Positions 11,353-28,056 of a stretch of 64,000 nt of DNA are shown here, in pieces; the stretch's first letter is position 1; every line of letters begins with the position of its first letter. A program made the translations under genes and the position numbers. Location: contig NZ_CP139088.1 in assembly GCF_038024855.1 (NCBI RefSeq), positions 124,001 to 188,000 on the forward strand. The letters run 5' to 3'. The notes below the pieces were generated by a model that was not told the DNA's origin, ran no database searches, and saw only the letters and a program-made list of their open reading frames with translations. The DNA comes from Methylocella tundrae. Lineage in GTDB: Bacteria; Pseudomonadota; Alphaproteobacteria; Rhizobiales; Beijerinckiaceae.

Positions 11353-11474
11353 TGCTCAAGAATGCCTGCGATTTCGGGGCGTTGGAATGACCTGAGTCAA
11401 TTCCGTCGGGACACGCGGATCCTCCCCTACGGAGGCGCATCCGCGTGGGTCGCCGGGAGGTTCGTCAGCCCGTC

Positions 11475-12662: not shown

Positions 12663-12790
12663 GCGAATTTCCTCCCTGAAAGAGCGTTGACTATAAAACA
12701 TCTCCTGCCGGAGCGGGGCGGCATAAGCCGGCGCCTTTCAGCCGGCCGATATAAGCGGCGCGATGACTTGTCCGGGGCAGGCGCGCCGGA

Positions 12791-13976: not shown

Positions 13977-14582
13977 CGTTTTATTCTAACCCTAGCGGGG
14001 TTATTCTGGATTGTTCTGGGTCAAACCAGCGCCGCTTCAGCCAGAAGGCGACAGAGCCATCTCTTTGCCTCCTCATCGCGAGCTTCAACTTGCCTCCTGA
14101 AAATGACAACGTGACGGCCCCAGCTATCGGCGCGTCCGTATGGGTCGATGTTGAGGTTCAGCTACGGGGGCGCGCCTCGTGCAGAGCCGCCGAGTTGCCG
14201 AGCCGCGCCCATGTTGGCGCTTGATTTGTAAATAGATGAGTAAACGCCGGACTTGGGCGCGTCCGTTCACCTCGGCAGTGTTACGGTCAGGCCTGAGGCT
14301 GGCCGGTCGCGCGCCGCCTGCGTCGGCAGTCTCGGCACGAACCCCGAACACAAACACGAGATGACGCCGGTTTGGAGGGCGCTCGATCGTATTTGATTTG
14401 CGTCAATGCGAAATATGCGGCTAGTGTAAAAATAATAACAATGATAAACAATCATTCAAATTTCACGTAATATACAAACTTTATCGAGAGTAAATATTTT
14501 TACAATAATTGCTCGCCAAAAGAACAGGCATCGAGCAGTTGCAACTTGATTTGCGTCAGGTTCTCATACCCAGCGATGTGAT
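13977..14582. promoter_or_regulatory. Long divergent regulatory gap upstream of the gas vesicle island
   Basis: About 600 bp without a convincing gene. The part from about 14410 to 14560 is strikingly AT-rich against the GC-rich background and contains the FNR-type sites listed separately. It should hold the promoter of the NtrC-type regulator (rightward) and that of the ArsC-glyoxalase gene (leftward). Confidence 0.6.
14393..14406. promoter_or_regulatory. FNR/FixK-type operator
   Basis: TTGATTTGCGTCAA fits the TTGA-N6-TCAA core recognised by FNR, FixK and NnrR regulators of low oxygen or nitrogen oxides. It lies 177 bp before the regulator start. A second near copy, TTGATTTGCGTCAG at 14546-14559, is 24 bp before the start codon and shares the same ten central bases. 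The identical cores suggest two sites for one regulator. Confidence 0.6.
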
Positions 14583-15980
14583 ATGATGGTTCAGCGCGCC
14601 ACGGTCCTGCTGATTGACGATGATCGGGATATGCGATGGGCGATGCGCAATATCCTCGCGGATGCGGGATTTGACGTCGCCGAAGCCGAAGGGGGCCGGT
14701 CCGGCCTCGATAGGGTCGTCCGCGCGGCGCCAGATGCTGTGGTGCTGGATATGCGGATGCCCGACCTCGGCGGCGATGAAGTGCTGCGCCGCCTCCACCG
14801 GCATGACCAGGGCCTCCCGGTCATCATCGTCACCGCCCATGGCAGCATTTCAGGGGCGGTGGGGGCCATTCGGGAGGGCGCCTTCGAGTATCTCACCAAG
14901 CCATTTCGCAACGACCATTTTGTGAATGCTGTGCAGCGAGCCATCGCGCGGCGCGGCGAGGCCCCCGCTTCGTCAGCAGTCGGCATCCGCGCCACGATCA
15001 AGGAAGCCATGGGCCAGGGCCCTGCGGTGGAGAGCCTGATCGATCAGATCGAAGCTGTCGCGGAGACTGACTATTCCGTCGTTATCCAGGGGGAGACCGG
15101 CGCCGGCAAAGAAGTCGTCGCGCGTAATCTCCATCGCTATAGCCGCCGGGCCGGCCGGCCGCTCGTCGTCGTCGATTGCGGCGCAATCGCCGAGACTCTC
15201 ACCGACACCGAATTCTTCGGTCACGAAAAGGGGGCCTATACGGGCGCCGTCGCGCGCCATCGCGGCTGGTTCGAGGTCGCAGCCAATGGCGGGACGATCT
15301 TTCTGGACGAGATCGGAAATCTCTCCATGACCGGGCAGAAGGCGCTTTTGCGAACACTCGAAGAGCGCACCATCCACAGGGTTGGCGGCACCGAATTGAT
15401 CGATCTCGACGTGCGCATTATTGCAGCCACGAACGATGATTTGAAGCACCGCGCCAAAGCTGGCGGCTTTCGCGAGGATCTCTACTTTCGCCTCGCCGAA
15501 TATGTCATCGCGGTTCCGCCGCTCCGCGCGCGGCCGGAGGATGTTGCATTCCTCGCGACGCGCTTTCTGACGCAGGCGCGGGCATCCCTCGGGCGGCCGC
15601 CGGCCGAAATAGCGCCGGCGGCGCTGGATCTGATGCGCGCTTATCGCTGGCCCGGAAATGTCCGTGAGTTGCGCAATGTCATGCGTCGGGCGGCGCTGAG
15701 CGCGTTGGAGGTGATAAAGCCTGAACATCTGACCGACAGCCTCGGCCTCTGCGCCGTGGCGCCTGTCCTGCCTCCCCCAATATCAACCAGCGTGATCACC
15801 CTCCGGCATAAGGTCCAGGACCATATCCGCGCGCTCGAGGGCGATGCGGTGGTGAAGGCGCTCGAGCAGGCCAGAGGCAATAAGGCCGAGGCGGCGCGGC
15901 TCCTTGGCATCGACTACAAGACCTACCGCACCAAGTTGAAGACGCTGCGAGAGCGCGTTGAGACGACGGTCGATGAATAA
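14583..15980 (+). CDS. Sigma-54-dependent NtrC-family response regulator of gas vesicle genes
   Basis: A 465-residue protein with three domains: a receiver (5-120; phosphoacceptor Asp56 in VLDMRMPD), an AAA+ sigma-54 activation domain (about 145-385; Walker A GETGAGKE at 170-177, GAYTGA loop at 217-222 in place of GAFTGA, Walker B TIFLDE) and a Fis-type helix-turn-helix (about 430-460). It should activate a sigma-54 promoter when phosphorylated. The kinase and lone receiver genes are just downstream, and a sigma-54 promoter precedes gvpA. The arrangement recalls the gvrA regulator of the Serratia gas vesicle cluster. Its 3' end overlaps the next gene by 8 bases. FNR-type sites upstream suggest oxygen-linked expression. 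Confidence 0.9.
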   Translation: MMVQRATVLLIDDDRDMRWAMRNILADAGFDVAEAEGGRSGLDRVVRAAPDAVVLDMRMPDLGGDEVLRRLHRHDQGLPVIIVTAHGSISGAVGAIREGAFEYLTKPFRNDHFVNAVQRAIARRGEAPASSAVGIRATIKEAMGQGPAVESLIDQIEAVAETDYSVVIQGETGAGKEVVARNLHRYSRRAGRPLVVVDCGAIAETLTDTEFFGHEKGAYTGAVARHRGWFEVAANGGTIFLDEIGNLSMTGQKALLRTLEERTIHRVGGTELIDLDVRIIAATNDDLKHRAKAGGFREDLYFRLAEYVIAVPPLRARPEDVAFLATRFLTQARASLGRPPAEIAPAALDLMRAYRWPGNVRELRNVMRRAALSALEVIKPEHLTDSLGLCAVAPVLPPPISTSVITLRHKVQDHIRALEGDAVVKALEQARGNKAEAARLLGIDYKTYRTKLKTLRERVETTVDE

Positions 15981-16821
15981 AATCGATCTTGAGCGCAACA
16001 GCGCCGCCGCGCCGCCGCCCATTGCGGGCGAGGAGGTCATCTGCCTTTTCGCCTTCGCCCAATATGATGGCGCGCTCGAGCGGCGCCCGCCCGAAGCGGT
16101 TTTGGAGCGACGGCTCATTCTGCATCGCGTAGGATCGGTAGCGGCGCTGATTGGCGTCGTTCCCGTCGCGGATTATTGCGGCGCCGATGCGGAGCGCCGT
16201 TTAGCCGATGTCGCTTGGCTGGCGCCGCGCGTGCGCCGTCATGCCGCCCTCGTCGATTGGGCGGCCCAATGGTCATCGGTGTTCCCGGCGCCTTTTGGCA
16301 CGCTCTACGAGAGCCTCGACAGCCTGACGGCGTTCACTCATGCCCATGTGGCGACGATCGCCGAATTCCTGCAGGCCGTCGCCGGCAAGGAAGAATGGGA
16401 GCTACGCGGTTCCGCCCGCCTCGATGAGGCCGAAAGCCTCGACCGGCTGGCGCGCGCGGCATGGCCGGACTGGTGCGAACTGACGCCCGGCAAGCGGTAT
16501 ATGCGGCTTTGCCGTGACAGAAATGCGCTTATCGAGCAGGGCCGCGCCGAGGCCGGCGCGTTTATTTGCGCCTTTGTGATGGACCTCAAACCCCTGACGG
16601 CCACCGTTCGCCTTCATGAAGCGAACCGCCGGCCAAACGGGGCGGACGAGCCGGAACTCATTGCACGCTACTCTTTGCTGGTGGCGAAACCAGACGTCGC
16701 CGCGTTGCAGGAGCGCGTGAGGGACGCGTCGGCCCGCGCCTCGCATGGACATGTCACGATTGCATTATCAGGCCCGTGGCCGCCGTTCAGTTTCCGGCCG
16801 GATCTCAAAGCGCCACATTAG
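15973..16821 (+). CDS. GvpL/GvpF family gas vesicle protein inside the regulatory cassette
   Basis: From ATG 15973, which overlaps the regulator stop (ATGAATAA), the protein has 282 residues. It has the GvpL/F two-domain pattern: an N-terminal alpha/beta domain beginning VICLFAFAQYDG, a helical middle, and the C-terminal SGPWPPFSF signature (ISGPWPP in the second copy). GvpF/L proteins are accessory assembly factors that bind GvpA in other systems. Its position between the response regulator and the histidine kinase, well away from the structural genes, suggests it may link assembly state to signalling; that is inference. It is more divergent than the gvpF further downstream. Confidence 0.85.
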   Translation: MNKIDLERNSAAAPPPIAGEEVICLFAFAQYDGALERRPPEAVLERRLILHRVGSVAALIGVVPVADYCGADAERRLADVAWLAPRVRRHAALVDWAAQWSSVFPAPFGTLYESLDSLTAFTHAHVATIAEFLQAVAGKEEWELRGSARLDEAESLDRLARAAWPDWCELTPGKRYMRLCRDRNALIEQGRAEAGAFICAFVMDLKPLTATVRLHEANRRPNGADEPELIARYSLLVAKPDVAALQERVRDASARASHGHVTIALSGPWPPFSFRPDLKAPH

Positions 16822-16844
16822 TGGCGGCAGGACAGGCGACGCAG

Positions 16845-18317
16845 ATGCCATTCGCCACGCTGGATCATCAGAGTTTCTTTCACGCGGTGATGGCGACGAT
16901 TCCTTCGTCCATCTTGATATTGGACGAGCGGGCGTCGGTGTTGGCGGCCAATCACAATTTTCTGGAAAAATCCCGCAGCAGCCTGACCTTGATCATGGGG
17001 CGGCGATTGCATGAGATTTTTCCCCCCGCCTTCCAGGACACGGCGCTCGACCAGCAAATCCGGGAGGTTATCGTCACGGGAAAAACGCTGCATCGCCAGC
17101 GGATGACCTACCGCGCGCCGGGTGTTCCCCTGCGGATCTATTCCTATAGCATCTGTCCGCTTCAGCTCCAGGGCGGCTCGGGCGGCGCTATTCTGGTCAT
17201 GGACGATGTGACCGACCTGTTGCGGCTGGGGGAGGAGGTGCGGCGGATGCAGTTGCATCTCGCCAGCATCGTCGAGAGCGCCGGCGATCTCATCATCTCC
17301 ACCGATCCAGACGGGGCCATCATGACCTGGAATACGGCGGCGGAGAAGGCCACCGGCTACACTCAGGCTGAAGTGCGCGGCACCCTGCTGACCAACCAGA
17401 TTGATCCCGAGGTGAAGCCCGATGTCGAAGCCTGTTTCCGAAGGATCGACCAGATCGAAGACCGACGCTCGTTCGAATGGCCGATGCGGTGCCGGGATGG
17501 CGATAGCATACCGGTTTCCTGGCATTTGTCGCATATGATTGCCCACAACAGCGAGGTTACGGGCGTCGTGGTCGTCGGGCGCAATCTCGTCGAGCAGCGG
17601 GCCATTGAGGCGCAGATGCACCAGGGCGAAAAGCTCGCCGCGCTTGGCATGGTGATTGGAGGCATCGCGCACGAAATTCGCAACCCGTTGGGCGTCAGCT
17701 CAGCGGCCGCGCAACTCATGAAGTACAGAATGACGTCGCCGGCTTTGCTCGAAGAATGCGTCACGAAAGTCATCGGCGGCATCGACCGCGCCTCGCTCAT
17801 CGTCGAGAGCCTGCTGCGGTTTGCGCGGCCCGGCCCTATCACCGAGACGACGCGGGTCGATGTGCATGACGTGTTGAAGAATGCTCTGATGTTCGCCTCC
17901 GGCGAGGCTGCGACCGGGACGACTGTTGATTGGCGACTGCCAGACACAACCCAGTCCTTATGGGCGGAAGGCGTGCAGAATCTTCTTGAGCTCGTCCTCA
18001 TCAATCTCATGCTGAACGCCTTCCAGGCAATGCCGAACGGCGGCCGCCTGACGATCGGCTTCCGGCTCGACGCCGCCGAAGTCGTCATCGAGATCGGCGA
18101 CACAGGCGTCGGTATTCCGGAGGCCCATGTCTCCAAAATCTTTGACCCCTTCTTCACGACGCGCAACGACAGTCGTCGGTCGGGGCTTGGCCTGTCCGTG
18201 TGTCATTCCATCGTGCGCCAGCACGGAGGCGGACTGACTGTGCGCACCTCGCCCGTCAATGGAACCACTTTCGTCGTGCGTCTTCCATCCGCTGCGCCTT
18301 CCAGGGAGAGTTCCTGA
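16845..18317 (+). CDS. PAS-containing sensor histidine kinase of the gas vesicle island
   Basis: From ATG 16845 (GGACAGG ribosome site) the protein has 490 residues; GTG starts at 16776 or 16821 are possible, the latter sharing a base with the preceding stop. Two PAS domains (about 5-115 and 130-250) are followed by a HisKA region with GGIAHEIRNPLG, carrying the phosphorylated His, and an ATPase domain with N (NLMLNAF), G1 (GDTGVGIP) and G2 (GLGLSVCHS) boxes. No membrane segment or signal peptide is seen, so the signal is probably cytoplasmic, such as redox, light or a ligand bound by PAS. It is of the NtrB type and is expected to phosphorylate the NtrC-type regulator. Confidence 0.9.
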   Translation: MPFATLDHQSFFHAVMATIPSSILILDERASVLAANHNFLEKSRSSLTLIMGRRLHEIFPPAFQDTALDQQIREVIVTGKTLHRQRMTYRAPGVPLRIYSYSICPLQLQGGSGGAILVMDDVTDLLRLGEEVRRMQLHLASIVESAGDLIISTDPDGAIMTWNTAAEKATGYTQAEVRGTLLTNQIDPEVKPDVEACFRRIDQIEDRRSFEWPMRCRDGDSIPVSWHLSHMIAHNSEVTGVVVVGRNLVEQRAIEAQMHQGEKLAALGMVIGGIAHEIRNPLGVSSAAAQLMKYRMTSPALLEECVTKVIGGIDRASLIVESLLRFARPGPITETTRVDVHDVLKNALMFASGEAATGTTVDWRLPDTTQSLWAEGVQNLLELVLINLMLNAFQAMPNGGRLTIGFRLDAAEVVIEIGDTGVGIPEAHVSKIFDPFFTTRNDSRRSGLGLSVCHSIVRQHGGGLTVRTSPVNGTTFVVRLPSAAPSRESS

Positions 18318-18318
18318 C

Positions 18319-18726
18319 ATGGGCCGCGCTGCGATCGAGCGCGCCCCCGAAACTGTCCTTATCGTGGACGATGATCAGGATATGTGTTGGGTGCTCGAGA
18401 TCGCTCTGGCGGGCGTTGGCTATACGGCGACCACGGTCGGTTCGGCGCAAAGCGCCATTTCATCGCTGGCTGAACAGTCCTTTCCGATCGCCTTCGTCGA
18501 TGCGCGGCTGCCTGATATGGACGGTCTGCGGCTGGTTGAGAAATTGCGCAACATGCAACCGGGGATGAGGATCATCATGATCTCCGGTTATTTCCTGGAA
18601 GACGACCTTCGCATCATCGAGGCGGTGCGGGCGTCCGAAATCGACGGTTTTCTGGCGAAGCCGTTTCGGATTGACGCGATCGTCGACGCGGTGAAGGGCA
18701 GTCGAGAGGGGAATCGGCGCCCGTGA
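18319..18726 (+). CDS. Stand-alone receiver-domain response regulator
   Basis: From ATG 18319 (GGGAGAG ribosome site), immediately after the kinase stop, the protein has 135 residues. It is a single CheY-like receiver domain with acidic pocket VDDDQD, phosphoacceptor in VDARLPDMDG, a Ser/Thr position in MISGY and the conserved Lys in LAKPF. It lacks an output domain and may act as a phosphate sink, a relay intermediate or a competitor for the kinase. It corresponds in position to the third regulator (gvrC) of the Serratia cluster. Confidence 0.85.
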   Translation: MGRAAIERAPETVLIVDDDQDMCWVLEIALAGVGYTATTVGSAQSAISSLAEQSFPIAFVDARLPDMDGLRLVEKLRNMQPGMRIIMISGYFLEDDLRIIEAVRASEIDGFLAKPFRIDAIVDAVKGSREGNRRP

Positions 18727-18841
18727 ATCTGGGCGCATTCGCCCGCATGCTGTGTAGAAGGCCGCGGGTTTTGTCGTGTTGGTAATGGCGAAGCTGTTGA
18801 TTCTCTGGCTCTATTTAAATTCCTGAAAAATTGCGCTCGCG

Positions 18842-18857
18842 TGGCTCCGTTCTTGCA
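18842..18857 (+). promoter_or_regulatory. Sigma-54 (-24/-12) promoter of gvpA
   Basis: TGGCTCCGTTCTTGCA matches TGGCACG-N4-TTGCW, with GG (18843-18844) and GC (18855-18856) exactly ten bases apart. It lies 80 bp before the gvpA start, leaving a leader of about 70 bases. A sigma-54 activator gene is in the same island, which makes functional use likely. Confidence 0.8.
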
Positions 18858-18937
18858 ATTTCTACAAGTGCCGGAGGGTTCTCGGCCTGTTCCGGTCAAT
18901 GCACGAAGCGCTCACAGCGTTCACAAGGAGAAGCTTC

Positions 18938-19156
18938 ATGGCACGCGTACAGAAGTCCACCGATTCGTCGAGCCTCGCCGAAGTTGTCGATCGGATCCTC
19001 GACAAAGGCATCGTGATCGATGCTTGGGTCAAGATCTCGCTGGTTGGTATTGAGCTGATCACGATCGAAGCTCGGGTCGTCGTGGCCTCGGTTGAAACCT
19101 ACCTCAAATATGCAGAAGCGGTCGGCCTTACGGCTTCCGCCGCAGCGCCCGCGTAG
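18938..19156 (+). CDS. gvpA: Major gas vesicle structural protein GvpA
   Basis: A 72-residue protein from ATG 18938 (AAGGAG ribosome site). It has the highly conserved GvpA core: [51 protein letters not shown] would be the family signature, here seen as a helix-strand-strand-helix between residues 13 and 62. GvpA forms the ribs of the hollow, gas-filled protein shell that gives buoyancy. It is the first structural gene behind the sigma-54 promoter and is followed by a strong hairpin that may raise its dose relative to downstream genes. The C-terminus is Ala-rich (ASAAAPA). Confidence 0.97.
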
Positions 19157-19170
19157 CGTCTGCAAGCAGC

Positions 19171-19206
19171 CCGGGAGCGCGGTCGCGACCACGATCGCGC
19201 TCCCGG
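19171..19206 (+). terminator. Strong hairpin between gvpA and gvpC
   Basis: Perfect 11-bp arms CCGGGAGCGCG/CGCGCTCCCGG enclose a 14-base loop, starting 14 bp after the gvpA stop. No T run follows, so it may act as a partial terminator or as an RNA stabiliser that gives gvpA more transcript than the accessory genes. Confidence 0.65.
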
Positions 19207-19236
19207 CGGCAATTTGACCCGGATGGAGGATGAGAC

Positions 19237-19980
19237 ATGGCGAAAATGGCGGAAAGCGCAACTCATATGATGGACGGAATCATGATGGCGCGCCGGCAGC
19301 GAAGCGAACTGGCGACGGAGATCAAGAATGCGACGACACGTCGCCATCGCGAAGTTCGCTCAATGCTGGAGAGCCTGAGGGCGTCGCGCGGCAGGGCAAC
19401 CCGCGAGCAGGCGGCCGGCCTCATGGCGGCGACCCGAACGCGCCACGCCGACGTTCACTCATTTATGCAGGGTTTGAAGACGTCGCGGATGCAGGAATCG
19501 AAGTCATCACGCGATAAGGCGCGCGATGAGAGGAACGGGCGTCGGCGGGAGGTCAAAGGGCTTCTCGGTAAGTTCGGCCGCGAACAGCTTGCTCGCCAGA
19601 AGCATCGCCAAAACGCCGCGGCGGCCTTCATGCGCGATCTGACGAGCGGCGTTGCTTCGCTCCTCGACAAATTCGACAAGAGCGGTCGCGATCGGGCCGT
19701 CGCCCTGCGCGCGCGTTTTGCCGGCTATGCACAGGATCGCCGCGAGGCGGTCGCGATATGGCGCGGAATGCCCCGTACGAGCAAGCCGGCGGCCGAAGCG
19801 AGCCATCGGCAGCCGGCTGAGTCTGTCGTTGTCCACGCCGCAGCGCCTCGGCCTGCCGAAGTCCCCTTGCCCGCCGCGACGCATGGAGCTTCCAGCGCCG
19901 CAGCGCAACCGAGTGATGCGATGAACCGTTCGGGCCGTCATCGTGGCTCGGGCGAACGTCACGGAGGCGATTCAAAATGA
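19237..19980 (+). CDS. gvpC: GvpC-like gas vesicle outer protein with 33-residue repeats
   Basis: A 247-residue, basic, mostly helical protein. Five successive periods of exactly 33 residues can be laid out by the valines at 40, 73, 106, 139 and 172, each preceded by a basic/polar stretch (RRHREV, TRHADV, RRREV, TSGV, RREAV) and followed by hydrophobic SML, SFM, GLL, SLL or AIW. A 33-residue period is the hallmark of GvpC, which wraps and stiffens the GvpA shell. The last 70 residues are Ala/Pro-rich and disordered-looking. It lies directly after gvpA, the usual place, and overlaps gvpN by four bases (ATGA). Confidence 0.8.
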   Translation: MAKMAESATHMMDGIMMARRQRSELATEIKNATTRRHREVRSMLESLRASRGRATREQAAGLMAATRTRHADVHSFMQGLKTSRMQESKSSRDKARDERNGRRREVKGLLGKFGREQLARQKHRQNAAAAFMRDLTSGVASLLDKFDKSGRDRAVALRARFAGYAQDRREAVAIWRGMPRTSKPAAEASHRQPAESVVVHAAAPRPAEVPLPAATHGASSAAAQPSDAMNRSGRHRGSGERHGGDSK

Positions 19981-20999
19981 GCGTCGTCCCATTCGCAAGT
20001 CACGATGCGGTCGATCCAGACGCTGGCGACCAAAGCGACTCCATCGCATTGGCTCCGAGCGAAGCATTCGTAAGCTCCGCCGCTGTCCAGGATATCACCG
20101 AGCGAGCCATGGCTTACCTCGAGGCAGGCTATGCCTTGCATTTATCAGGCCCTCCCGGCACCGGGAAGACGACGCTCGCCTTCCACGTCGCGGCTCAGCT
20201 CGGCCGTCCCGCGATCCTCATCCATGGCGATCATGAGTTCGGCAGTTCCGACCTCATCGGTCGTGAGAGCGGGTATCGCAAGTCGCGCCTCGTCGACAAC
20301 TACATCCCCTCGGTCTTCAAGCTTGAAGAGGAAGGGCGCGCGCTTTGGATCGACAACCGCATTACAACAGCTTGCCGGCTTGGACATTCGATCATTTACG
20401 ATGAATTCAATCGGAGCAAGCCGGAAGCCAACAACCCGTTCCTCAGCATCTTATCGGAGGGAGTTCTCAACATTCCGGGATTGCACGGCCGAGGCGAGGG
20501 CTACGTCAAAGTGCACCCATGCTTTCGCGCGATCTTCACTTCAAACCCGGCGGAATACGCGGGCGTCTACCGCGCCCAGGACGCTTTGCTGGATCGGATG
20601 ATCACCCTGGAGCTCGGTCACTACGATCGGGAGACGGAGATCGCCATCACGGCCAGCAAATCCGGCGTCGATCCGCAACGCGCGGCGCGGGTCGTCGATG
20701 TCGTGAGGGCGTGCCGCGTCGAGGGAAAGGATCCACATTTTCCCACTCTGCGCGCCACGATCGCCATCGCCCGCGTGCTCGCTACGCGCGGCGGCGAAGC
20801 AAGCTATCGCAATCCCGTCTTCCTTTGGGCCTGCCGCGACATCCTCAGCCACACGACGCCGAACGGAAAGAGCGACCAGGCGGTTTCGCCTGATTTCATC
20901 GACCTTATCCTGCGCCGCTCCGAAGGCGCGGAGGAGGGCGGTAAGGCGACGATGCGGTCAGGCGGCCGCGCGGCCGCGCGAGCCAAAGGAGGAAAATGA
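19977..20999 (+). CDS. gvpN: Gas vesicle AAA ATPase GvpN
   Basis: A 340-residue MoxR-like AAA+ protein. The Walker A is GPPGTGKT at 58-65 and the Walker B-like segment is HSIIYDEFNR; sequence through SEGVLNIPG and FTSNPAEYAG is typical of GvpN. It is thought to act as a chaperone-type ATPase in vesicle growth, working with GvpC. The ATG overlaps the gvpC stop, and the end overlaps the next start by four bases, so it is translationally coupled on both sides. The C-terminus carries a short Arg/Gly/Ala-rich tail. Confidence 0.95.
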   Translation: MSVVPFASHDAVDPDAGDQSDSIALAPSEAFVSSAAVQDITERAMAYLEAGYALHLSGPPGTGKTTLAFHVAAQLGRPAILIHGDHEFGSSDLIGRESGYRKSRLVDNYIPSVFKLEEEGRALWIDNRITTACRLGHSIIYDEFNRSKPEANNPFLSILSEGVLNIPGLHGRGEGYVKVHPCFRAIFTSNPAEYAGVYRAQDALLDRMITLELGHYDRETEIAITASKSGVDPQRAARVVDVVRACRVEGKDPHFPTLRATIAIARVLATRGGEASYRNPVFLWACRDILSHTTPNGKSDQAVSPDFIDLILRRSEGAEEGGKATMRSGGRAAARAKGGK

Positions 21000-21325
21000 C
21001 CATGCCGGCGCAAGGACGACCTTTAAGGGGAACCGCTGATTTACGAACGTTGACGAACCGCTCGGACATACAGATTCCAGCTCACAAGGCTTATCTGCGC
21101 ATCAGCTTTCTCGAATTGGAGAAAGCTCGCCGAACGCTGGAAGTGCGCGCGGCGAGCGACCGCTTCGAGAAAATTCAAACCCGCTTTCGTGAGATCGACG
21201 CTGAAATCGCCAATATACTGGCCAACCTGAATGGCGCTGCGCCGCGTGCGCATGCGGTTGCTGCGCCGCATCGATCGCCTGTAGGGCGCAAGCCCATGAA
21301 GCGAAACTTCCAACTTTCGTATTGA
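20996..21325 (+). CDS. Small gas vesicle cluster protein, GvpV-like by position
   Basis: A 109-residue protein starting inside the gvpN stop (ATGA; the second ATG at 21002 is also possible). Residues 30-80 form a charged helical region (HKAYLRISFLELEKARRTLE and on) that could be a coiled coil. Its place directly after gvpN matches gvpV in the Serratia cluster, and length agrees, but the identification is positional. Function is unknown; GvpV is an accessory protein. Confidence 0.6.
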   Translation: MTMPAQGRPLRGTADLRTLTNRSDIQIPAHKAYLRISFLELEKARRTLEVRAASDRFEKIQTRFREIDAEIANILANLNGAAPRAHAVAAPHRSPVGRKPMKRNFQLSY

Positions 21326-21436
21326 ACGGCTGTTCGCCCCGAAGCGACTGCCTTGCCTCAGTTATTTACACTTCGAGAGCTGCCGACCGACGAATTCCTT
21401 CCGATCGCGCGGCAAAATTGCGTGGAGATGAAGCAG

Positions 21437-21796
21437 ATGCTGCCCAAGAACCAAAGAGCAGGACACGAAGACGATCAAAAGTCGAAGGTCACGGCGCCAC
21501 CGCCCCCGCCCCCGCCCCCGCCTGTCGGCAAGGTGTCGGCGGCCCGGGCCGCGGTCAAGCAATTCCTCGAGTCAGAGTTGGGCGCGCGGGAGACCCGGAT
21601 CACCAAGATCGCGCCTGTTGAACATGGCGCGCTGGGATGGTCCGCGGAGGCCGAAATTCTCGTCCCGAACCTTGAAATCAAGACGCTCGGCCTGCCGCTA
21701 ACGCAGGAAATTCTCGAACAGGAATACTACCTGGTCGAACTCGATATAGATCTGATCGTCCGGTCTTACGAATATCTCAGCCCGAGCAGCCACTGA
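21437..21796 (+). CDS. gvpO: Gas vesicle protein GvpO
   Basis: From ATG 21437 (GTGGAG ribosome site) the protein has 119 residues. After a charged start and a run of nine prolines (about residues 20-28) comes a compact alpha/beta domain matching GvpO: ARAAVKQFLESE, the RITKI strand, GWSAEAEILVP, and a conserved TQEILEQEYYLVELD. GvpO is an essential accessory protein in haloarchaea, with a suggested role in expression or assembly. The polyproline run is probably a flexible spacer. Upstream TTG and ATG starts exist but lack proper spacing. Confidence 0.85.
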   Translation: MLPKNQRAGHEDDQKSKVTAPPPPPPPPPVGKVSAARAAVKQFLESELGARETRITKIAPVEHGALGWSAEAEILVPNLEIKTLGLPLTQEILEQEYYLVELDIDLIVRSYEYLSPSSH

Positions 21797-21834
21797 GCGC
21801 GACAGCGGGCGGACTTGTTGTGGGAGAGCATGCG

Positions 21835-22572
21835 ATGGGTCTCTATGTCTATGCCGTGGGTCGAGCGGGGGACGACGAACTGCCGGCGCTGGAGGGCATC
21901 CTCGATCAGCCGGTCAATCGCCTTGAGCAGGGATCGCTCTGCGCCATCGTCAGCGAGTGTTCTCTTGCGCTGGTGCGCGCCGAGCGCCGCAACATCGCGG
22001 CCAATCAACGCGTGCTCAGCGCCCTCAACACGCAGTTCGACATATTGCCGATGGCGTTCGGCGCCGTGACCAAATCGGAAGCTGAGCTGCGGCTTTTCCT
22101 CGACGAGCACCAAGACACGCTGACGGCGCAGCTGTTGCGGATCGCCGGCGCGATCGAAATGAGTCTGCGCGTGCGCCTTGAGGTTCCTGATCCTATCGCC
22201 TACCTTGTGGAACGGACGCCGGCGTTGCGCGCTGCGCGCGAACGCACTTTCCGCAGCCGCCGGCCTCCGTCTTACGATGATAGAATCCGGCTCGGTCAGC
22301 TGTGCGAGGACGCCTTGCGTCAATACCGCGACGGCCGCACGGCGCAGGTCGTCGCCGTTGTCGGCGCCTCCTGCGCTGAAGTCATGAAATTGCCTGTTCG
22401 CGAGGAAAAAGAGATCGCAAATTTGGCGGCGCTGGTGCCTCGCGCGGGTCTCGATCAATTCGAGGTTGCCGTGAATGAGTCGGCGGCGCAGCTCGACGAA
22501 GACATCGCTTTCGACATCAGCGGCCCCTGGCCGCCGCATAATTTCGTGCAGTTCAATCCGGTCGGCCAATAG
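21835..22572 (+). CDS. gvpF: Gas vesicle protein GvpF/GvpL
   Basis: From ATG 21835 (GGGAG ribosome site) the protein has 245 residues. It opens with LYVYAVGRAGD, contains the ILPMAFGAV segment, a helical middle and the terminal ISGPWPPHNF signature, all characteristic of the GvpF/L family. GvpF/L binds GvpA and is a minor vesicle or assembly component. This is the canonical copy in the island, next to gvpO and gvpG, while a divergent relative sits in the regulatory cassette. Confidence 0.93.
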   Translation: MGLYVYAVGRAGDDELPALEGILDQPVNRLEQGSLCAIVSECSLALVRAERRNIAANQRVLSALNTQFDILPMAFGAVTKSEAELRLFLDEHQDTLTAQLLRIAGAIEMSLRVRLEVPDPIAYLVERTPALRAARERTFRSRRPPSYDDRIRLGQLCEDALRQYRDGRTAQVVAVVGASCAEVMKLPVREEKEIANLAALVPRAGLDQFEVAVNESAAQLDEDIAFDISGPWPPHNFVQFNPVGQ

Positions 22573-22608
22573 AACGCGCAACGCCGTTCACCCTTGGAGG
22601 ACGCGACC

Positions 22609-22875
22609 ATGTTTGTCATCGACGATCTGCTTTCGGCGCCCGGGCACGTTGTCGCCTTCGTTCTGAGGAATATTCTGACCGTCAAAAAGTTCAGCTCGGT
22701 AAGATCCGCGAGGCTGACGGAGGCGCCGGCGTCGCCCACTGTCGGAGACGAACGAGATCATGTTTCACTGCGCCAGTCTGCCGACGGCGCCGCCGGACGA
22801 TCCGACCCTCCTCGTCAACAGAATGCCGAGCAACATCGGGCAGACCACGCGCGGTTCGGCCCGCGCGACGGATAG
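22609..22875 (+). pseudogene. Broken duplicate of gvpG
   Basis: The first 20 codons (MFVIDDLLSAP and a hydrophobic helix) copy the start of the intact gvpG 300 bp downstream (MFLIDDLLSAP), including similar sequence just before the ATG (GGAGGACG). After that, the reading frame loses all GvpG character: no E/D-rich helix and no LYRLDRL end. The result is an 88-codon frame of low-complexity sequence. This looks like a tandem duplication whose copy has been scrambled by frameshift or recombination. It could still make a short membrane-proximal peptide. Confidence 0.6.
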
Positions 22876-22914
22876 TACGCTCATCACCGCCATTCAGCTT
22901 CAAAGGACGCCGCC

Positions 22915-23175
22915 ATGTTTCTTATCGACGATCTGCTATCGGCGCCGTTGCGGGGGCTCGTCTTTGTTCTGAAGAAGATTGATCAAGCGGTCCAGGAAGA
23001 GGCCGCTCTCGACGAGCGGGCCATCATGGCTGATCTGTCAGCGCTCCACCGCGCGCTCGACAATGGGGCGATCACCGAAGCGGAATTCGATGCGCGCGAA
23101 CAGGCGTTGCTGTATCGCCTCGATCGCCTGCATGGGGAGGACGGGTCCGATGCCAGCGGCGATGCTCGTTCCTGA
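22915..23175 (+). CDS. gvpG: Gas vesicle protein GvpG
   Basis: An 86-residue protein from ATG 22915 (AAAGGA ribosome site). A hydrophobic N-terminal helix (LSAPLRGLVFVLKKI) is followed by an acidic helical region (EEAALDERAIMADLSALHRAL) and the GxITEAEFDAREQALLYRLDRL end typical of GvpG. It is an accessory assembly protein. It overlaps the start of the GvpJ-K fusion gene by 26 bases. Confidence 0.92.
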   Translation: MFLIDDLLSAPLRGLVFVLKKIDQAVQEEAALDERAIMADLSALHRALDNGAITEAEFDAREQALLYRLDRLHGEDGSDASGDARS

Positions 23176-23785
23176 TTCGGATCCCCTATCCACGGCGCGG
23201 CCGGAGCGCGGCGACCAGCTATCGCTGGCTGATGCGCTCGATCGAATCCTCCAGCGCGGAGTGGCGGCGCAAGGCAATGTGACGATCGGGCTGGCGGAGG
23301 TCGATCTGCTGTTTCTCGATCTGAGATTGCTCCTCGGCTCGGTGGACGCGATCTGGCCGGAAGGGCGCCCGCCCGTGCAGCCTGTGCATCCACGAACGCC
23401 GCCGCAAGCGCCGCCGCAAGCGCCTTCGACGCCAATGCCGGCCGCCGCCGCGCCGCGGCCCGAAATCGCCGCTGTCAGCATGGGCCCCACAAGGATTCAT
23501 CCGCAACCGCCGATCGCCCCCACCGGCGCCCCGGGCCCCTCCGGGTCATCGACGGCCCAAGGCCTCGTTCGTCTCGTGCTCACCCTTGTCAAATTGCTTC
23601 ATGACGTGCTCGAACGGCAGGCCGTGCGGCGTATGGAGGCGGGGCGCCTGACCGACATGCAGGTCGAGAACGTCGGCGCGGCGCTTTTCGCTCAAGCCGA
23701 AGAGATCGAACGCTTGAAGCGGCAGTTCGGATTTTCCGACAAAGATCTTTCCCTCGACCTTAGCGTTCCCGATGGGGCGCTTTGA
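23150..23785 (+). CDS. gvpK: Fusion of a GvpA/J-type domain with GvpK
   Basis: From ATG 23150 (GGGGAGGA ribosome site) the protein has 211 residues. Residues 24-68 are a GvpA/J/S-like domain (LADALDRILQRGV, then VDLLFLDLRLLLGSVD). Residues 70-134 are a Pro/Ala-rich linker with tandem PPQAP units. Residues 138-205 are GvpK (LVRLVLTLVKLLHDVLE, GRLTDMQVENVGAALF, then FSDKDLSLDL). In other clusters these are separate accessory genes thought to act early in vesicle nucleation. Fusing them fixes a 1:1 ratio and physical contact. No frameshift is needed to read through both parts. Confidence 0.88.
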   Translation: MPAAMLVPDSDPLSTARPERGDQLSLADALDRILQRGVAAQGNVTIGLAEVDLLFLDLRLLLGSVDAIWPEGRPPVQPVHPRTPPQAPPQAPSTPMPAAAAPRPEIAAVSMGPTRIHPQPPIAPTGAPGPSGSSTAQGLVRLVLTLVKLLHDVLERQAVRRMEAGRLTDMQVENVGAALFAQAEEIERLKRQFGFSDKDLSLDLSVPDGAL

Positions 23786-23796
23786 AAGGTATCGTC

Positions 23797-24138
23797 ATGC
23801 CATCCGCCAATTCCCTGACCCATTCCGTCGACAGCACGAATCTCGCTGATCTGCTCGAGCGTATTCTCGACAAGGGCGTCGTGATCGCCGGCGACATTTC
23901 GATCAAGCTGGTCGAAGTCGAGCTTCTGACAATTCAATTGCGCCTGGTGATCTGCTCCGTCGACAAGGCGCAAGAACTCGGCCTCGATTGGTGGAACTAC
24001 AGTGGACGTCCCGACCGCCTGGCATTGGAGCGCACCGCCGCGCTCGAAGCGATGGACGCGCGATTGGGCCGGATCGAGCAGGCGCTAGGCGCCGTCGTCG
24101 CGGCGCCATTTGAGCAAGGGAGCACGACTCATGGGTAG
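23797..24138 (+). CDS. Second GvpA-family protein (GvpJ/GvpM-like)
   Basis: From ATG 23797 (GAAAGGT ribosome site), 113 residues. The core LADLLERILDKGVVIAGDISIKLV and the following strand and helix align with GvpA, but with a different, longer C-terminus (about 70-113) with WWNYSG and an amphipathic helix. Such longer paralogues, named J, M or S in different systems, are minor accessory proteins that seed assembly and are not the main shell protein. Its end overlaps the Hsp20-type gene by eight bases (ATGGGTAG). Confidence 0.88.
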   Translation: MPSANSLTHSVDSTNLADLLERILDKGVVIAGDISIKLVEVELLTIQLRLVICSVDKAQELGLDWWNYSGRPDRLALERTAALEAMDARLGRIEQALGAVVAAPFEQGSTTHG

Positions 24139-24655
24139 GGACAATGAAAACAACAAAGATGACGACACCGGCGCGGCCGGGTTCACCAAGATCGCACGCG
24201 GGCTTTCCGATCTCTTCACCGTGCTCGCCGATTTCGATCAGCTGCCGCGCCGCGGGCGGCACGAGAAGGATGGGAGGGTAATGGAATATTCCTTTGGCAA
24301 GCGCACGCTCGTCGACGAAGGGGAAGAAAGCGGTAGCCACGAGGAGACTGCTCCGGCGCGCCCTGAGACGCCGCGCCGCCGTGCTGCGAAGCCAAGCTCT
24401 CTCGAAGTCCTCGAGCCCGTCACGGACATGTTCGACGAGCCGGGCGAGATCATATTGCTCTTCGAGCTGCCCGGCGTCGAACGCAAGGCGATACGCTGCA
24501 TCCTTGACGGCGATATACTCCTCCTTGAGGCGAAGACAGGCGAACGGCTTTATCGCAAAGAGACGCTCATCGAAGAGAAGCTCGCCCCCGGGGCGCCGCA
24601 CCTCACTCTGCGCAACGGAGTTCTTGAAGTCCGACTGAGCAAGCAGACAACCTAG
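24131..24655 (+). CDS. gvpH: Hsp20-type gas vesicle protein GvpH
   Basis: From ATG 24131 (AAGGGAG ribosome site), 174 residues. An N-terminal charged region (about 1-95) precedes an alpha-crystallin domain (about 98-174) with the segments TDMFDEPGEIILLFELPGV and a terminal LRNGVLEVRL. GvpH proteins act as small chaperones that keep other Gvp proteins soluble. The C-terminal IxI-type tail is short. The start lies inside the preceding gene's stop, so translation is coupled. Confidence 0.85.
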   Translation: MGRDNENNKDDDTGAAGFTKIARGLSDLFTVLADFDQLPRRGRHEKDGRVMEYSFGKRTLVDEGEESGSHEETAPARPETPRRRAAKPSSLEVLEPVTDMFDEPGEIILLFELPGVERKAIRCILDGDILLLEAKTGERLYRKETLIEEKLAPGAPHLTLRNGVLEVRLSKQTT

Positions 24656-24701
24656 CGCTCCGCCTTTACGCGTAGTGCTTGGAAACGGAGCCGACGGCAA
24701 G

Positions 24702-25259
24702 ATGGCGCGATTGATCTACGTTCCGGTGCTTCATAGCACTCCCGAGATGGGTTCTTCCGCACGCGCCTATGAGGCAGCCTTCGTCGCCCGCTATGGCCAG
24801 AGCAAATGGGAGGAGCGATCCGCCAAATTCGACGCCATCTGGCGCGCCATCGCGGATGCGATCAAGGCGCTCTGGCTCGATCTCAGGCGCGTCAAGCTGT
24901 TCCAGGACAGCTTGCCGGTCTGTGGCCGGGAGGTCGCGCTGGTGGAGGAACTGGCGGCCCAGGGCAGTCAGAACCATCAACTCCTGGTCAACCTCATGCG
25001 CGGCGGCGCGACGCTCGTCGGCACCGAGTCGCCGGACCTGCTTCTCGAAGAATATCGGGCGCTCCAATCGCCCGAGCAGCGCACCGAGGCGAGCGCCGCG
25101 GCGCTGCTTGAGGCCCGCGACCGCTTTATCGGCGGGCGCATCGAGGCGACGCTTGGCGATGCGGAGGATGGAATTCTTTTTATCGGAGCCCTGCATGACG
25201 TCGCCAGATTTCTGCCGCGACGCATCAAGGTCGAATATCTGCAAATCCGCGATCAATAG
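24702..25259 (+). CDS. Uncharacterised protein of the gas vesicle island
   Basis: From ATG 24702, 185 residues; a TTG at 24675 extends it by nine codons. The N-terminus RLIYVPVLHSTPEMGS, the central LPVCGREVALVEELAAQGSQNH and GATLVGTESPDLLLEEY look like a small alpha/beta enzyme-like fold with several conserved-seeming polar motifs. It is not a GvpF/L homologue. I recall similar proteins of unknown function in other bacteria and archaea. Location between gvpH and the CDC48 gene makes a vesicle-linked role likely but unproven. Confidence 0.65.
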   Translation: MARLIYVPVLHSTPEMGSSARAYEAAFVARYGQSKWEERSAKFDAIWRAIADAIKALWLDLRRVKLFQDSLPVCGREVALVEELAAQGSQNHQLLVNLMRGGATLVGTESPDLLLEEYRALQSPEQRTEASAAALLEARDRFIGGRIEATLGDAEDGILFIGALHDVARFLPRRIKVEYLQIRDQ

Positions 25260-25290
25260 CGATCGTCAATGAAGACGATGGGAGGACGAC

Positions 25291-27486
25291 ATGTCAGGCG
25301 AAGCATCAGCGACGAACATGGAGAAGTTGCGCCTGACGGTCGTCGAGGCGCGGCGCGAGGACGTAGGACGCGGCATCGTCAGGGTCGATCCCGAAACGCT
25401 GCGGCAGATCGGCGCCTCGCCTGGCGACGTGCTTGAGATTGAAGGGCGCGCAAAGACCGTCGCCAAGGGAATGCCGACCTTCAAGGAACAAAGAGGTCAG
25501 CAGGTTATCCAGATGGATGGGGTCGGGCGCACCAACGCCGGCGTGGCGCTGGGCCAGAGGGCCATGATCAGCAAGGTCTCCTCTGCGGTCGCCCGTCGTG
25601 TTGTCATGGCGCCGCTGGGCGCCGGCGCCTTGCGCGAAGATGAAATCGACCACATGGCGCGCCGCCTCGACGGGCTCGCCATGAAGGCTGGCGACCGCGT
25701 CAGGATCGCTTTGTTTGGGGGAAACCACCGCGATTTCCAGGTCGTGCGAAGCGAACCCGATGGACCGGTGATGATTCATCCGGACACATTGCTCGCCATT
25801 GAAAATCCACGCGGCGGGTCGGCAGGCAAGGCGGAGGCGGCGGCGGAGGACATCGTCACCTATGACGATCTCGGCGGCATGGAGCGCGAAGTCGCGAAAA
25901 TACGCGAGATGATCGAGCTGCCGCTCACCCATCCTGAAATCTTTGAGCGTCTTGGCATGACGCCGCCCAAAGGCGTGCTGATGCACGGGCTGCCCGGCTG
26001 CGGCAAGACGCTCCTGGCGCGCGCCGTGGCCCATGAGGCCGCCGCGGCTTTCATCTATGTCAGCGGACCGGAAATCATACAGAAATTCTACGGCGAGAGC
26101 GAAGCCCGGTTGCGCAAGATCTTCGACGACGCGCAGCGGCGCGCGCCCTGCATCATTTTCTTTGACGAAATAGATGCGATCGCGCCCAAACGCGAGCGTG
26201 TCGAAGGCGAGGTGGAAAAGCGCGTCGTCGCCCAGCTTCTTGCGCTGATGGACGGACTGAAGGGCCGCGGCGACGTGATTGTGATGGCCGCCACCAATCG
26301 CCCCAACAGTATAGATCCGGCCTTGCGGCGGCCAGGCCGCTTCGACCGGGAGATCGCCATCGGCATCCCCAACGAGCACGCCCGGCTCGAGATCCTGGAG
26401 ATTTACGCACGTGGGATGCCTCTCGGCGATGATGTCGATCTCAAGGAACTCGCCGAGACGACGCACGGCTTTACTGGCGCGGATCTGAACGCTCTTTGCC
26501 GTGAGGCCGCCATGGCGGCGCTGCGTCGTCAGCTTCCTGAACTGGCGCTCGATTCGGGGCCAATTCCCTATGAGGCGCTGATGGCGATGGAGGTTGGTAT
26601 GACGGATTTCAGGGAGGGCCTCAGCGAGGTGTCGCCCTCTGGGTTGCGCGAAGTAGCGGTCGAAGTGCCAAATGTCCGATGGGACGACGTGGGAGGGCTT
26701 GAGTCGATCAAGGCCGCTCTGCAGGAGGCCATCGCTTGGCCTTTGAGCCAGCCGGCTCTGTTCGAGCAGATCCAATTACAGCCGCCACGCGGCATCCTTC
26801 TTTATGGTCCGCCCGGGAATGGCAAGACGCTTTTGGTGAAGGCGCTGGCCTCGCAAAGCAATCTCAACTTCATTTCGGTCAAAGGACCGGAGCTTTTGTC
26901 AAAATATATCGGGGAGTCCGAACAGGGCGTGCGCGAACTCTTCGCGCGGGCCCGCCAGGCGGCGCCTTGCATTATCTTTCTCGACGAGGTCGACGCCTTG
27001 GTGCCGAAGCGCGGCTTCGACGGCCGCTCGCCGGTGACAGACCGGGTCGTCAGCCAATTGCTTACCGAACTCGATGGCGTAGAGGCGCTCAAGGACGTTT
27101 GGGTGATCGCAGCGACCAACCGGCCCGATATGCTCGATGACGCCCTTCTGCGCCCCGGCAGGCTCGATTTTCGGCTTGAGGTGCCGCGCCCGGATCGCGT
27201 CGCGCGGCAGGCGATCCTGGCGGTGCATCTGCGCAGGAAGCCGATCGATCAGCGTATCGATCTCTCAGCCCTGGCCGAGTTGACGGAAGGAATGTCGGCG
27301 GCCGAGGTTCGGTTCGTCTGCGACCGCGCCGCCATGAATGCGATCCGCCGCGTGTTTCCAGCGGCCAAAGGCGGATTGGTCGACGTCGCCACCCTGCGCA
27401 TCGAGCAGCGGGACTTCGACGAGGCCATTGGGGACCGGGCCGCTGCTTCAGGACAGCCGGCGGCGCCACAACCAATTCTTTTTTAG
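25291..27486 (+). CDS. CDC48/p97-type tandem AAA+ ATPase
   Basis: A 731-residue protein (GGGAGG ribosome site). Residues 10-185 form a CDC48 N-domain (double-psi barrel with LRLTVVEARREDVGRGIV). Two AAA+ modules follow: Walker A GLPGCGKT at about 232-239 with Walker B IIFFDEIDA, and GPPGNGKT at about 506-513 with IIFLDEVDA; each has an ATNRP sensor and an arginine-finger RPGRFDR or RPGRLDF. CDC48/p97 rings unfold or extract proteins. This type is common in archaea and eukaryotes and scattered in bacteria. Inside a gvp island it may remodel vesicle proteins or dismantle vesicles. Confidence 0.93.
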   Translation: MSGEASATNMEKLRLTVVEARREDVGRGIVRVDPETLRQIGASPGDVLEIEGRAKTVAKGMPTFKEQRGQQVIQMDGVGRTNAGVALGQRAMISKVSSAVARRVVMAPLGAGALREDEIDHMARRLDGLAMKAGDRVRIALFGGNHRDFQVVRSEPDGPVMIHPDTLLAIENPRGGSAGKAEAAAEDIVTYDDLGGMEREVAKIREMIELPLTHPEIFERLGMTPPKGVLMHGLPGCGKTLLARAVAHEAAAAFIYVSGPEIIQKFYGESEARLRKIFDDAQRRAPCIIFFDEIDAIAPKRERVEGEVEKRVVAQLLALMDGLKGRGDVIVMAATNRPNSIDPALRRPGRFDREIAIGIPNEHARLEILEIYARGMPLGDDVDLKELAETTHGFTGADLNALCREAAMAALRRQLPELALDSGPIPYEALMAMEVGMTDFREGLSEVSPSGLREVAVEVPNVRWDDVGGLESIKAALQEAIAWPLSQPALFEQIQLQPPRGILLYGPPGNGKTLLVKALASQSNLNFISVKGPELLSKYIGESEQGVRELFARARQAAPCIIFLDEVDALVPKRGFDGRSPVTDRVVSQLLTELDGVEALKDVWVIAATNRPDMLDDALLRPGRLDFRLEVPRPDRVARQAILAVHLRRKPIDQRIDLSALAELTEGMSAAEVRFVCDRAAMNAIRRVFPAAKGGLVDVATLRIEQRDFDEAIGDRAAASGQPAAPQPILF

Positions 27487-27537
27487 GATCCTTGTGACTC
27501 CAACCGACGCAGAACGTCATGACAAAAGGAGAGGGAT

Positions 27538-27816
27538 ATGCAGTTTCAAGAATCAGTATCGCACGGCGCCCTTTTTCAGGAGCATCGAGCGGAGGTGATC
27601 CGCGAGAGCCTTGATCATTTGTTGGCCATGGCGCAGCGTTACCGCAGCGAAGGCAGCCGCCGGCAGGCGATGGAAATTTACTGGATGTTGTCAGAAGATC
27701 ATTCCGAAACGATGCAAGCGCAGGCTGCGCAGGACAAGCTGCTCGAATTGGCTCACATCTACGAACGCGATGGCTCCAGGCATCAGGCGCGCGCCGTCTA
27801 TGAGCGCCTGTTGTGA
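27538..27816 (+). CDS. Small TPR-like helical protein at the end of the gas vesicle island
   Basis: A 92-residue protein from ATG 27538 (AAAGGAGAGG ribosome site), 51 bp after the CDC48 gene. It is all-helical, with two TPR-like helix pairs: DHLLAMAQRYRSEGSRRQAMEIY and LELAHIYERDGSRHQARAVY. The pairs share the pattern A-x-x-Y-x-x-x-G-S-x-x-Q-A, so this is one duplicated unit, enough for a small protein-binding surface. It may be an adaptor for the ATPase. A GC hairpin (27912-27933) follows. Confidence 0.7.
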   Translation: MQFQESVSHGALFQEHRAEVIRESLDHLLAMAQRYRSEGSRRQAMEIYWMLSEDHSETMQAQAAQDKLLELAHIYERDGSRHQARAVYERLL

Positions 27817-27911
27817 CTCTCATGCGTGGTCACGCAGGATCATTGTGCGCGCTCACGCCGCGCCGGCGCATAACCGTGGCGATTGATCTGTAGACAAGCA
27901 GCGCACACAGA

Positions 27912-27933
27912 GCGCGGGCGAGTCCGCCCGCGC
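27912..27933 (+). terminator. GC-rich hairpin after the gas vesicle island
   Basis: Perfect 9-bp arms GCGCGGGCG/CGCCCGCGC with a four-base loop, 95 bp past the last gene. There is no T run, so this may be a Rho-assisted end or only a stable structure. Confidence 0.45.
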
Positions 27934-28056
27934 GACTGTTGGCGATCCGCCGCGCGGCCCTGGTGCAAAGTTGCATTTCTCAAAATCCGCGCCGGGGAGA
28001 TGACGGCTGCGCTGGACTGCCGGATCTGCTTAGGAATTGATGGATGCTCTCGTCGC

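What the first reader, a model, noticed from the sequence alone, without database searches (positions are those of the whole stretch)
14583..27816. Complete gas vesicle island with its own regulatory cassette in a methanotroph-like genome
Thirteen kilobases of co-oriented genes combine regulators, GvpA, GvpC, GvpN, GvpO, GvpF, GvpG, a GvpK fusion, a second GvpA-type protein and GvpH. The order resembles the Serratia sp. 39006 cluster, but with the regulators in front of the structural genes. Gas vesicles are not a well-known trait of Methylocella-like bacteria. Buoyancy would let a microaerophilic methane or propane oxidiser hold its place in an oxygen gradient.
Basis: partly seen in the sequence, partly recalled or inferred. 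Interest (0 to 1): 0.75.

Follow-up and report, generated by a model that had tools for sequence, protein, structure and literature searches.

The report
Plasmid gas vesicle cluster with CDC48
A methane-eating tundra bacterium carries on a plasmid a complete, intact set of genes for gas-filled flotation vesicles, together with its own on-switch and a protein-unfolding machine that is not usually listed among gas vesicle genes.

Summary
Window 14583-27816 carries an intact, co-oriented gas vesicle (gvp) cluster on a 304-kb contig matching megaplasmid A of Methylocella tundrae T4. It is patchy: 9 of 199 sampled family genomes have one, and none of 8 congeners outside the species. The regulators are the known Serratia kind (sigma-54 NtrC-type activator, PAS kinase, receiver). 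A sigma-54 element (TGGC-N7-TTGC) starts 89-101 nt before gvpA in 9 of 9 gvpA regions of this cluster type. CDC48 lies beside gvp in 12 of 15 gvp-positive genomes. One fully supported branch separates 13 gvp-linked CDC48s from 11 unlinked ones. The 185-residue protein was found in 9 of 34 chosen genomes, all with gvp and CDC48; it weakly resembles TraB/ChaN-like proteins. I read this as a gas-vesicle-specific unfoldase module, a new variant of a known kind. Vesicles, transcripts and the module's role are untested.

The parts
14583..15980 (+). gvrA: NtrC-family response regulator (receiver, sigma-54 activation AAA, Fis-type HTH)
   Evidence: Pfam PF00072, PF00158, PF02954 over cut-off; 53-72% identical in 6 syntenic loci outside M. 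tundrae
15973..16821 (+). gvpF/L (first copy), between the regulators
   Evidence: PF06386 E=1.5e-30
16776..18317 (+). gvrB: PAS-PAS histidine kinase, no transmembrane segment by hydropathy (start codon uncertain)
   Evidence: PF08448, PF00989, PF00512, PF02518; maximum 19-residue hydropathy 1.28
18319..18726 (+). gvrC: receiver-only response regulator
   Evidence: PF00072
18842..18857 (+). sigma-54 -24/-12 promoter element TGGC-N7-TTGC upstream of gvpA
   Evidence: 9 of 9 gvpA regions of this cluster type, 0 of 5 other gvp clusters; all 8 site bases invariant in an alignment of 8 regions with 55% mean identity
18870..18896 (+). possible 5'-UTR hairpin before gvpA (suggestive only)
   Evidence: 85% of cells paired, 17 of 500 shuffles as high; covariation score 27 of 500
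18938..19156 (+). gvpA: main shell protein, 72 aa
   Evidence: PF00741 and NCBIfam PRK09371 over cut-off; 94-100% identical to 10 related copies, two of them from M. tundrae
19237..19980 (+). gvpC-like protein with 33-residue repeats
   Evidence: autocorrelation z=5.5 at lag 33; position; 7 members aligned
19977..20999 (+). gvpN: MoxR-type AAA+ ATPase
   Evidence: AAA_5; RefSeq gvpN in H1 and H2
20996..21325 (+). 109-aa conserved accessory gene (gvpV-like by position; name recalled)
   Evidence: 30 invariant columns in 7 aligned members; no Pfam over cut-off
21353..21796 (+). gvpO-like gene (weak; start uncertain)
   Evidence: PF05800 in 2 of 7 aligned members, best E=0.016
21820..22572 (+). 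gvpF (second GvpF/L)
   Evidence: PF06386 E=4.6e-53
22609..22875 (+). truncated gvpG-like reading frame
   Evidence: 22 N-terminal residues match GvpG in L030, L039 and L082; no Pfam hit for the window frame
22915..23175 (+). gvpG
   Evidence: PF05120 E=9e-16
23150..23785 (+). gvpS/A-type + gvpK fusion
   Evidence: PF00741 and PF05121 in one frame
23782..24138 (+). gvpJ-type (second GvpA family protein)
   Evidence: PF00741 over cut-off; best NCBIfam GvpJ, below cut-off
24110..24655 (+). gvpH-like small heat shock protein
   Evidence: Hsp20 NF041800 E=1e-17, below its cut-off; RefSeq names the gene at this place in Methylosinus gvpH
24702..25259 (+). 185-aa unnamed family ('X185'), weakly TraB/ChaN-like
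25291..27486 (+). CDC48/VAT-type double AAA unfoldase
   Evidence: PF02359, PF02933, PF00004 twice; best solved match a VCP-like ATPase, 5g4f, E=7e-205; motifs intact
27538..27816 (+). 92-aa TPR-like protein, possibly the last gene of the operon
   Evidence: TPR_14 E=2e-4, below cut-off; outside M. tundrae a homologue after CDC48 only in L071

Best explanation
This is a complete, plasmid-borne gas vesicle cluster. Most likely a soluble PAS kinase (GvrB) signals to the NtrC-type activator GvrA (with GvrC as modulator); GvrA then opens a sigma-54 promoter in front of gvpA and switches on the long gvpA-to-cdc48 operon. GvpA forms the shell, GvpC stiffens it, and GvpN, F, G, J, S-K and H nucleate and grow it. 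At the end of the operon a gas-vesicle-specific CDC48 unfoldase, with the 185-aa TraB-like protein as partner, most likely pulls apart misassembled or aggregated Gvp proteins (quality control or turnover), next to the Hsp20-type GvpH. Shown: gene content, open frames, conservation, promoter element, co-occurrence. Inferred: operon structure, signal flow, buoyancy, and the role of CDC48 and the 185-aa protein.
For: Profiles for the Gvp set. Same gene order in Methylosinus sp. C49 plasmid pMSC49b, and, as far as their contigs reach, in a Methylocystis MAG, an Azospirillaceae MAG and unnamed family members. dN/dS below 0.5 in 75 of 76 computable comparisons; CDC48 0.02-0.12. Sigma-54 element 9 of 9; rpoN on the largest contig; GvrA/sigma-54 control of gvpA1 is shown in Serratia (PMC4982088 passages). 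CDC48 beside gvp in 12 of 15 gvp+ genomes; in the family sample 9 of 9 gvp+ against 7 of 190 gvp- (Fisher p=1e-11, not corrected for kinship). Gvp-linked CDC48s on one side of a 100/100 branch. Walker and pore-loop motifs intact. 185-aa protein: 9 of 12 gvp+CDC48+, 0 of 3 gvp+CDC48-, 0 of 11 CDC48+gvp-, 0 of 8 with neither.
Confidence: 0.8

Rival explanations
1. CDC48 and the 185-aa protein act on the regulators (for example remodelling or removing GvrA), not on the vesicle proteins.
For: They are encoded in the same locus as the regulators.
Against: CDC48 stays beside gvp genes where the regulators are only distant (G443, about 30% identity) or not found in the stretch read (G171), so it does not track gvrA closely.
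Confidence: 0.12
2. CDC48 and the 185-aa gene are passengers that travel with the cluster and have no vesicle function.
For: Patchy distribution and plasmid location in two species fit transfer of a fixed block.
Against: Low dN/dS on both genes; linkage persists in a differently arranged cluster, G443, with cdc48 next to the GvpK part and the 185-aa gene after it; gvp-linked CDC48s fall together.
Confidence: 0.12
3. The cluster is intact but silent, or used for something other than buoyancy in peat (surface-to-volume ratio, gas diffusion, storage).
For: T4 was isolated from a Sphagnum peatland (PMC6522787); passages of PMC12810054 discuss other roles in terrestrial methanotrophs; no report of vesicles in T4 found.
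Against: Full structural set with low dN/dS and a conserved promoter element.
Confidence: 0.3

Closest known systems
Serratia sp. ATCC 39006 gas vesicle locus
   Same: NtrC-type GvrA with a sigma-54 site before gvpA1; GvrB and GvrC; Gvp A, C, N, F, G, K, H and V genes (PMC4982088 passages)
   Different: Here the regulators come first and all genes face one way; gvpS and gvpK are fused; CDC48 and the 185-aa gene are added. The passages and gene lists I saw name neither.
Methylosinus sp. C49 plasmid pMSC49b gvp cluster
   Same: Same order gvrA, gvpF/L, PAS kinase, receiver, gvpA to gvpH, 185-aa gene, CDC48; also on a plasmid
   Different: 39-70% protein identity outside GvpA; the gene at the gvpC place is shorter and is not found by tblastn with the window's gvpC
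VAT / CDC48 (p97) unfoldases
   Same: N domain, CDC48 domain 2, two AAA domains, Walker A/B, an aromatic residue in both pore loops
   Different: Encoded inside a gvp cluster; falls apart from 11 other alphaproteobacterial CDC48s
TraB/PrgY/gumN (TIKI) and ChaN/EreA-like proteins
   Different: 185 residues against a 263-position profile; no hit for the window's own protein; first motif has P for G (the family's GxxH motifs are recalled, not from a call)

Membership tests
Gas vesicle gene cluster | GvpA shell protein | tested here: met
   PF00741 and PRK09371 over cut-off
Gas vesicle gene cluster | Conserved set gvpA, C, F, G, K, L, N (as listed in PMC9501494, passages) | tested here: met
   GvpC by 33-residue periodicity only; two proteins of the joint GvpL/GvpF family, F and L not told apart
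Gas vesicle gene cluster | Vesicles seen by microscopy, collapsed by pressure | not testable with these tools
   needs cells
Gvr-type sigma-54 regulation | NtrC-family activator in the cluster | tested here: met
Gvr-type sigma-54 regulation | sigma-54 site before gvpA and an rpoN gene | tested here: met
   sequence element 9 of 9; rpoN; transcription start not mapped
CDC48/VAT family | CDC48_N and domain 2 plus two AAA domains with intact Walker motifs | tested here: met
GvpO | PF05800 over cut-off | tested here: not met
   no hit for the window protein; 2 of 7 members, best E=0.016
TraB/PrgY/gumN (TIKI) | PF01963 over cut-off (26.8 bits) | tested here: not met
   no hit for the window protein; 8 of 10 members shown match, best 21.0 bits
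TraB/TIKI/ChaN/EreA-like fold | shared fold | tested here: inconclusive
TIKI metalloprotease | proteolytic activity | not testable with these tools
   needs assay

The most novel reading that the evidence does not exclude
The gvp-linked CDC48 and the 185-aa TraB-like protein form a dedicated unfoldase module (with a possible hydrolase or adaptor) that extracts, recycles or proof-reads gas vesicle proteins: a p97-type disassembly machine for a bacterial protein organelle, spread among type II methanotrophs and relatives.
Probability: 0.35. Interest if true: 0.75.

Novelty: new variant of a known kind. Interest (0 to 1): 0.5.

Why it matters
How gas vesicles are proof-read or taken apart in the cell is, as far as I know (recalled), open. 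A vesicle-specific CDC48 in a bacterium would make that testable, and would give p97-type unfoldases a defined natural bacterial substrate. It also shows that alphaproteobacterial methanotrophs can carry complete gas vesicle gene sets, with a sigma-54 switch, on plasmids, which bears on how methane oxidisers place themselves between methane and oxygen.

Tried and rejected
Decayed cluster: rejected. The window's frames are open, dN/dS is below 0.5 in 75 of 76 computable comparisons (80 gene pairs aligned, 4 not computable, 5 genes without a hit; the exception, gvrC against L071 at 0.60 and 30% identity, is probably not the orthologue; three target stretches, gvpF/L in L071 and gvrC and gvpG in L073, contain one stop, perhaps from alignment past the gene end), and a second M. 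tundrae isolate has all 17 queried genes (L030). The 2019 T4 record LR536451 splits gvrA, gvpF/L, the gvpO-like gene and cdc48; over 17 kb it differs from the window by 9 single-base indels and no substitution, so these breaks look like errors of that record (inference).

CDC48 as a gvp-only marker: rejected. 7 of 190 gvp-negative family genomes and 4 of 381 gvp-negative class genomes also have one over cut-off. CDC48_N hits below the cut-off (7 genomes of the family list and 19 of the class list) were dropped before counting.

Rfam families in 14000-28000: 0 at gathering score. Sigma-70-like sites 2 (shuffles 3.3) and terminator-like sites 14 (shuffles 11.9, sd 3.7), so no excess. The strict sigma-54 pattern also occurs 6 further times in the 64-kb window, both strands. 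The 5'-UTR hairpin is only suggestive. Foldseek gave 0 PDB matches at E<=0.001 for the 185-aa model. The particulate methane monooxygenase profile found nothing in the own genome, but no control rang either.

The gvpA query and the window line of the truncated gvpG were out of frame; gvpA comparisons come, the gvpG frame.

Literature: 10 searches used. 'methylocella'+'gas vesicle' gave 2 papers: in PMC11008690 the Methylocella passages shown do not concern gas vesicles; the other, on Thermococcus by title and abstract, was not opened. 'gas vesicle'+'CDC48' gave 8; in the two opened by passages Cdc48 is a purification contaminant (PMC6107691) and a gene of another genomic island (PMC3119063); the other six were seen as listings only. 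'methylocapsa'+'gas vesic' gave 0. Subscription papers are not held, so absence from print is not shown.

Full report
WHAT WAS CHECKED. The finding names a 13-kb gas vesicle island at 14583-27816. Pfam and NCBIfam scans confirm a sigma-54 NtrC-type regulator, two GvpL/GvpF proteins, a PAS histidine kinase, a receiver, GvpA, GvpN (AAA_5), GvpG, a Gas_vesicle+GvpK fusion and a GvpJ-type protein, all on the + strand with overlapping or closely spaced frames. GvpC has no profile hit but shows a 33-residue periodicity. GvpH is supported weakly, and GvpO only at best E=0.016 in 2 of 7 aligned members.

WHERE IT LIES. The window is part of a 303,952-base contig, C2, of a 4.42-Mb genome of three contigs. 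Over 17 kb it matches plasmid record LR536451 of Methylocella tundrae T4 with 9 single-base indels and no substitution, so it is very probably the same strain and plasmid. The T4 genome announcement (PMC6522787, part 1 of 2 of the text read) describes two megaplasmids with repABC and propane monooxygenase on megaplasmid A; that part does not mention gas vesicles. A further T4 genome sequence is reported in PMC11102522 (passages). The RefSeq copy of LR536451 annotates gas vesicle genes, so they are in the databases.

HOW WIDESPREAD. With the GvpA profile 9 of 199 genomes sampled from the family are positive; within the genus only the two genomes of this species are, against 0 of 8 others. With the GvpK profile 4 of 385 class genomes and 5 of 398 phylum genomes are positive, this genome counted each time. 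That makes 15 distinct gvp-positive genomes. The same cluster type in the same order is on a plasmid of Methylosinus sp. C49, in a Methylocystis MAG and, as far as its contig reaches, in an Azospirillaceae MAG. Protein identities to the Azospirillaceae MAG (about 54-83% from gvrB to cdc48 outside gvpA and gvpC) are like those inside the family. With the patchy spread this suggests horizontal transfer, though a MAG contig can be misbinned.

INTACTNESS. Against a second M. tundrae isolate and four further clusters, dN/dS (Nei-Gojobori) is below 0.5 in 75 of 76 computable gene comparisons. The exception (gvrC against L071, 0.60) is a 30%-identical match that is probably not the orthologue. GvpA is 94-100% identical to 10 related copies.

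REGULATION. Upstream of gvpA a strict TGGC-N7-TTGC element starts 96 nt before the start codon. The same element starts 89-101 nt before gvpA in 9 of 9 regions of this cluster type (two of them from one genome and two from near-identical clusters of one genus) and in 0 of 5 other gvp clusters; the chance per region in simulated sequence is 0.4-2.1% for the nine. The whole 64-kb window holds 7 such matches on both strands. In an alignment of eight such regions with 55% mean identity the eight site bases are all among the 21 invariant columns. An rpoN gene is present. In Serratia the NtrC-like GvrA controls gvpA1, whose start lies behind a consensus sigma-54 site, and GvrA, GvrB and GvrC are needed for full expression (PMC4982088, passages). 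The same paper says the two operons are inverted in two species, so regulators in front are not new. G009 has gvrA and gvpF/L but no gvrB or gvrC hit before gvpA. A conserved 5'-UTR hairpin is possible but weakly supported (17 of 500 shuffles as high).

THE CDC48 MODULE. The last large gene encodes a CDC48 protein with N domain, domain 2 and two AAA domains. Its best solved match is a VCP-like ATPase (5g4f; archaeal VAT, recalled). Walker A and B motifs and an aromatic residue in both pore loops are present, so it should be an active unfoldase. In the family sample 9 of 9 gvp-positive genomes have CDC48_N over cut-off, each on the same contig near gvp genes, against 7 of 190 gvp-negative ones, five of them of one genus (Fisher p=1e-11, without correction for kinship). 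In the class sample 7 of 385 are over cut-off: 3 gvp-positive and 4 gvp-negative, the latter all of one family. Over all 15 gvp-positive genomes CDC48 lies beside gvp in 12. The three without are G458, G749 and G765; in the 19-kb stretches of G749 and G765 tblastn found no GvpN either, so those two may be another kind of cluster. The Octadecabacter and Spartinivicinus stretches have no CDC48 by annotation or tblastn. In a tree of 24 CDC48 proteins the 13 gvp-linked and the 11 unlinked ones are split by one branch with 100/100 support; G171 and G443 have long branches, G539 is a fragment and no outgroup was used.

READING. The cluster is a known kind with known regulation. The added CDC48 plus 185-aa module did not turn up as described for gas vesicles in ten searches of an open-access library, most hits of which I saw as listings only; subscription papers were not searchable. 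The most likely role is extraction or proof-reading of Gvp proteins beside the Hsp20-type GvpH; this is inference from co-occurrence, selection and fold.

Noticed in passing
22609-22875: A truncated second gvpG-like frame directly before the real gvpG; a 22-residue N-terminal match to GvpG is also seen in M. tundrae isolate 2 (L030) and in the Methylocystis MAG (L082).
   Followed up: partly
9484-12701: PHB synthase (PhaC) and, by the RefSeq annotation of the matching T4 plasmid, acetyl-CoA acetyltransferase on the - strand just upstream, so carbon-granule and gas vesicle genes are neighbours on the plasmid.
   Followed up: no
L039 (NZ_LR536451.1 53499-82482): The 2019 T4 record splits gvrA, the first gvpF/L, the gvpO-like gene and cdc48 relative to the window; its annotation of this island is therefore misleading.
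   Followed up: yes
62311-63384: Phenol_Hydrox-type monooxygenase subunit (PF02332) near the window end, fitting the plasmid-borne propane monooxygenase cluster reported for T4; another PF02332 gene follows on the same contig.
   Followed up: partly
28100-28420: MazE/AbrB-type antitoxin gene just after the island.
   Followed up: no
L105, L106 (G749, G765): Two genomes of one genus have GvpA-, GvpJ- and GvpK-type matches but no GvpN or CDC48 match in the 19-kb stretches read, perhaps a reduced cluster.
   Followed up: partly
13101-13976: A low-molecular-weight phosphatase domain fused to a glyoxalase-like domain next to the island.
   Followed up: no
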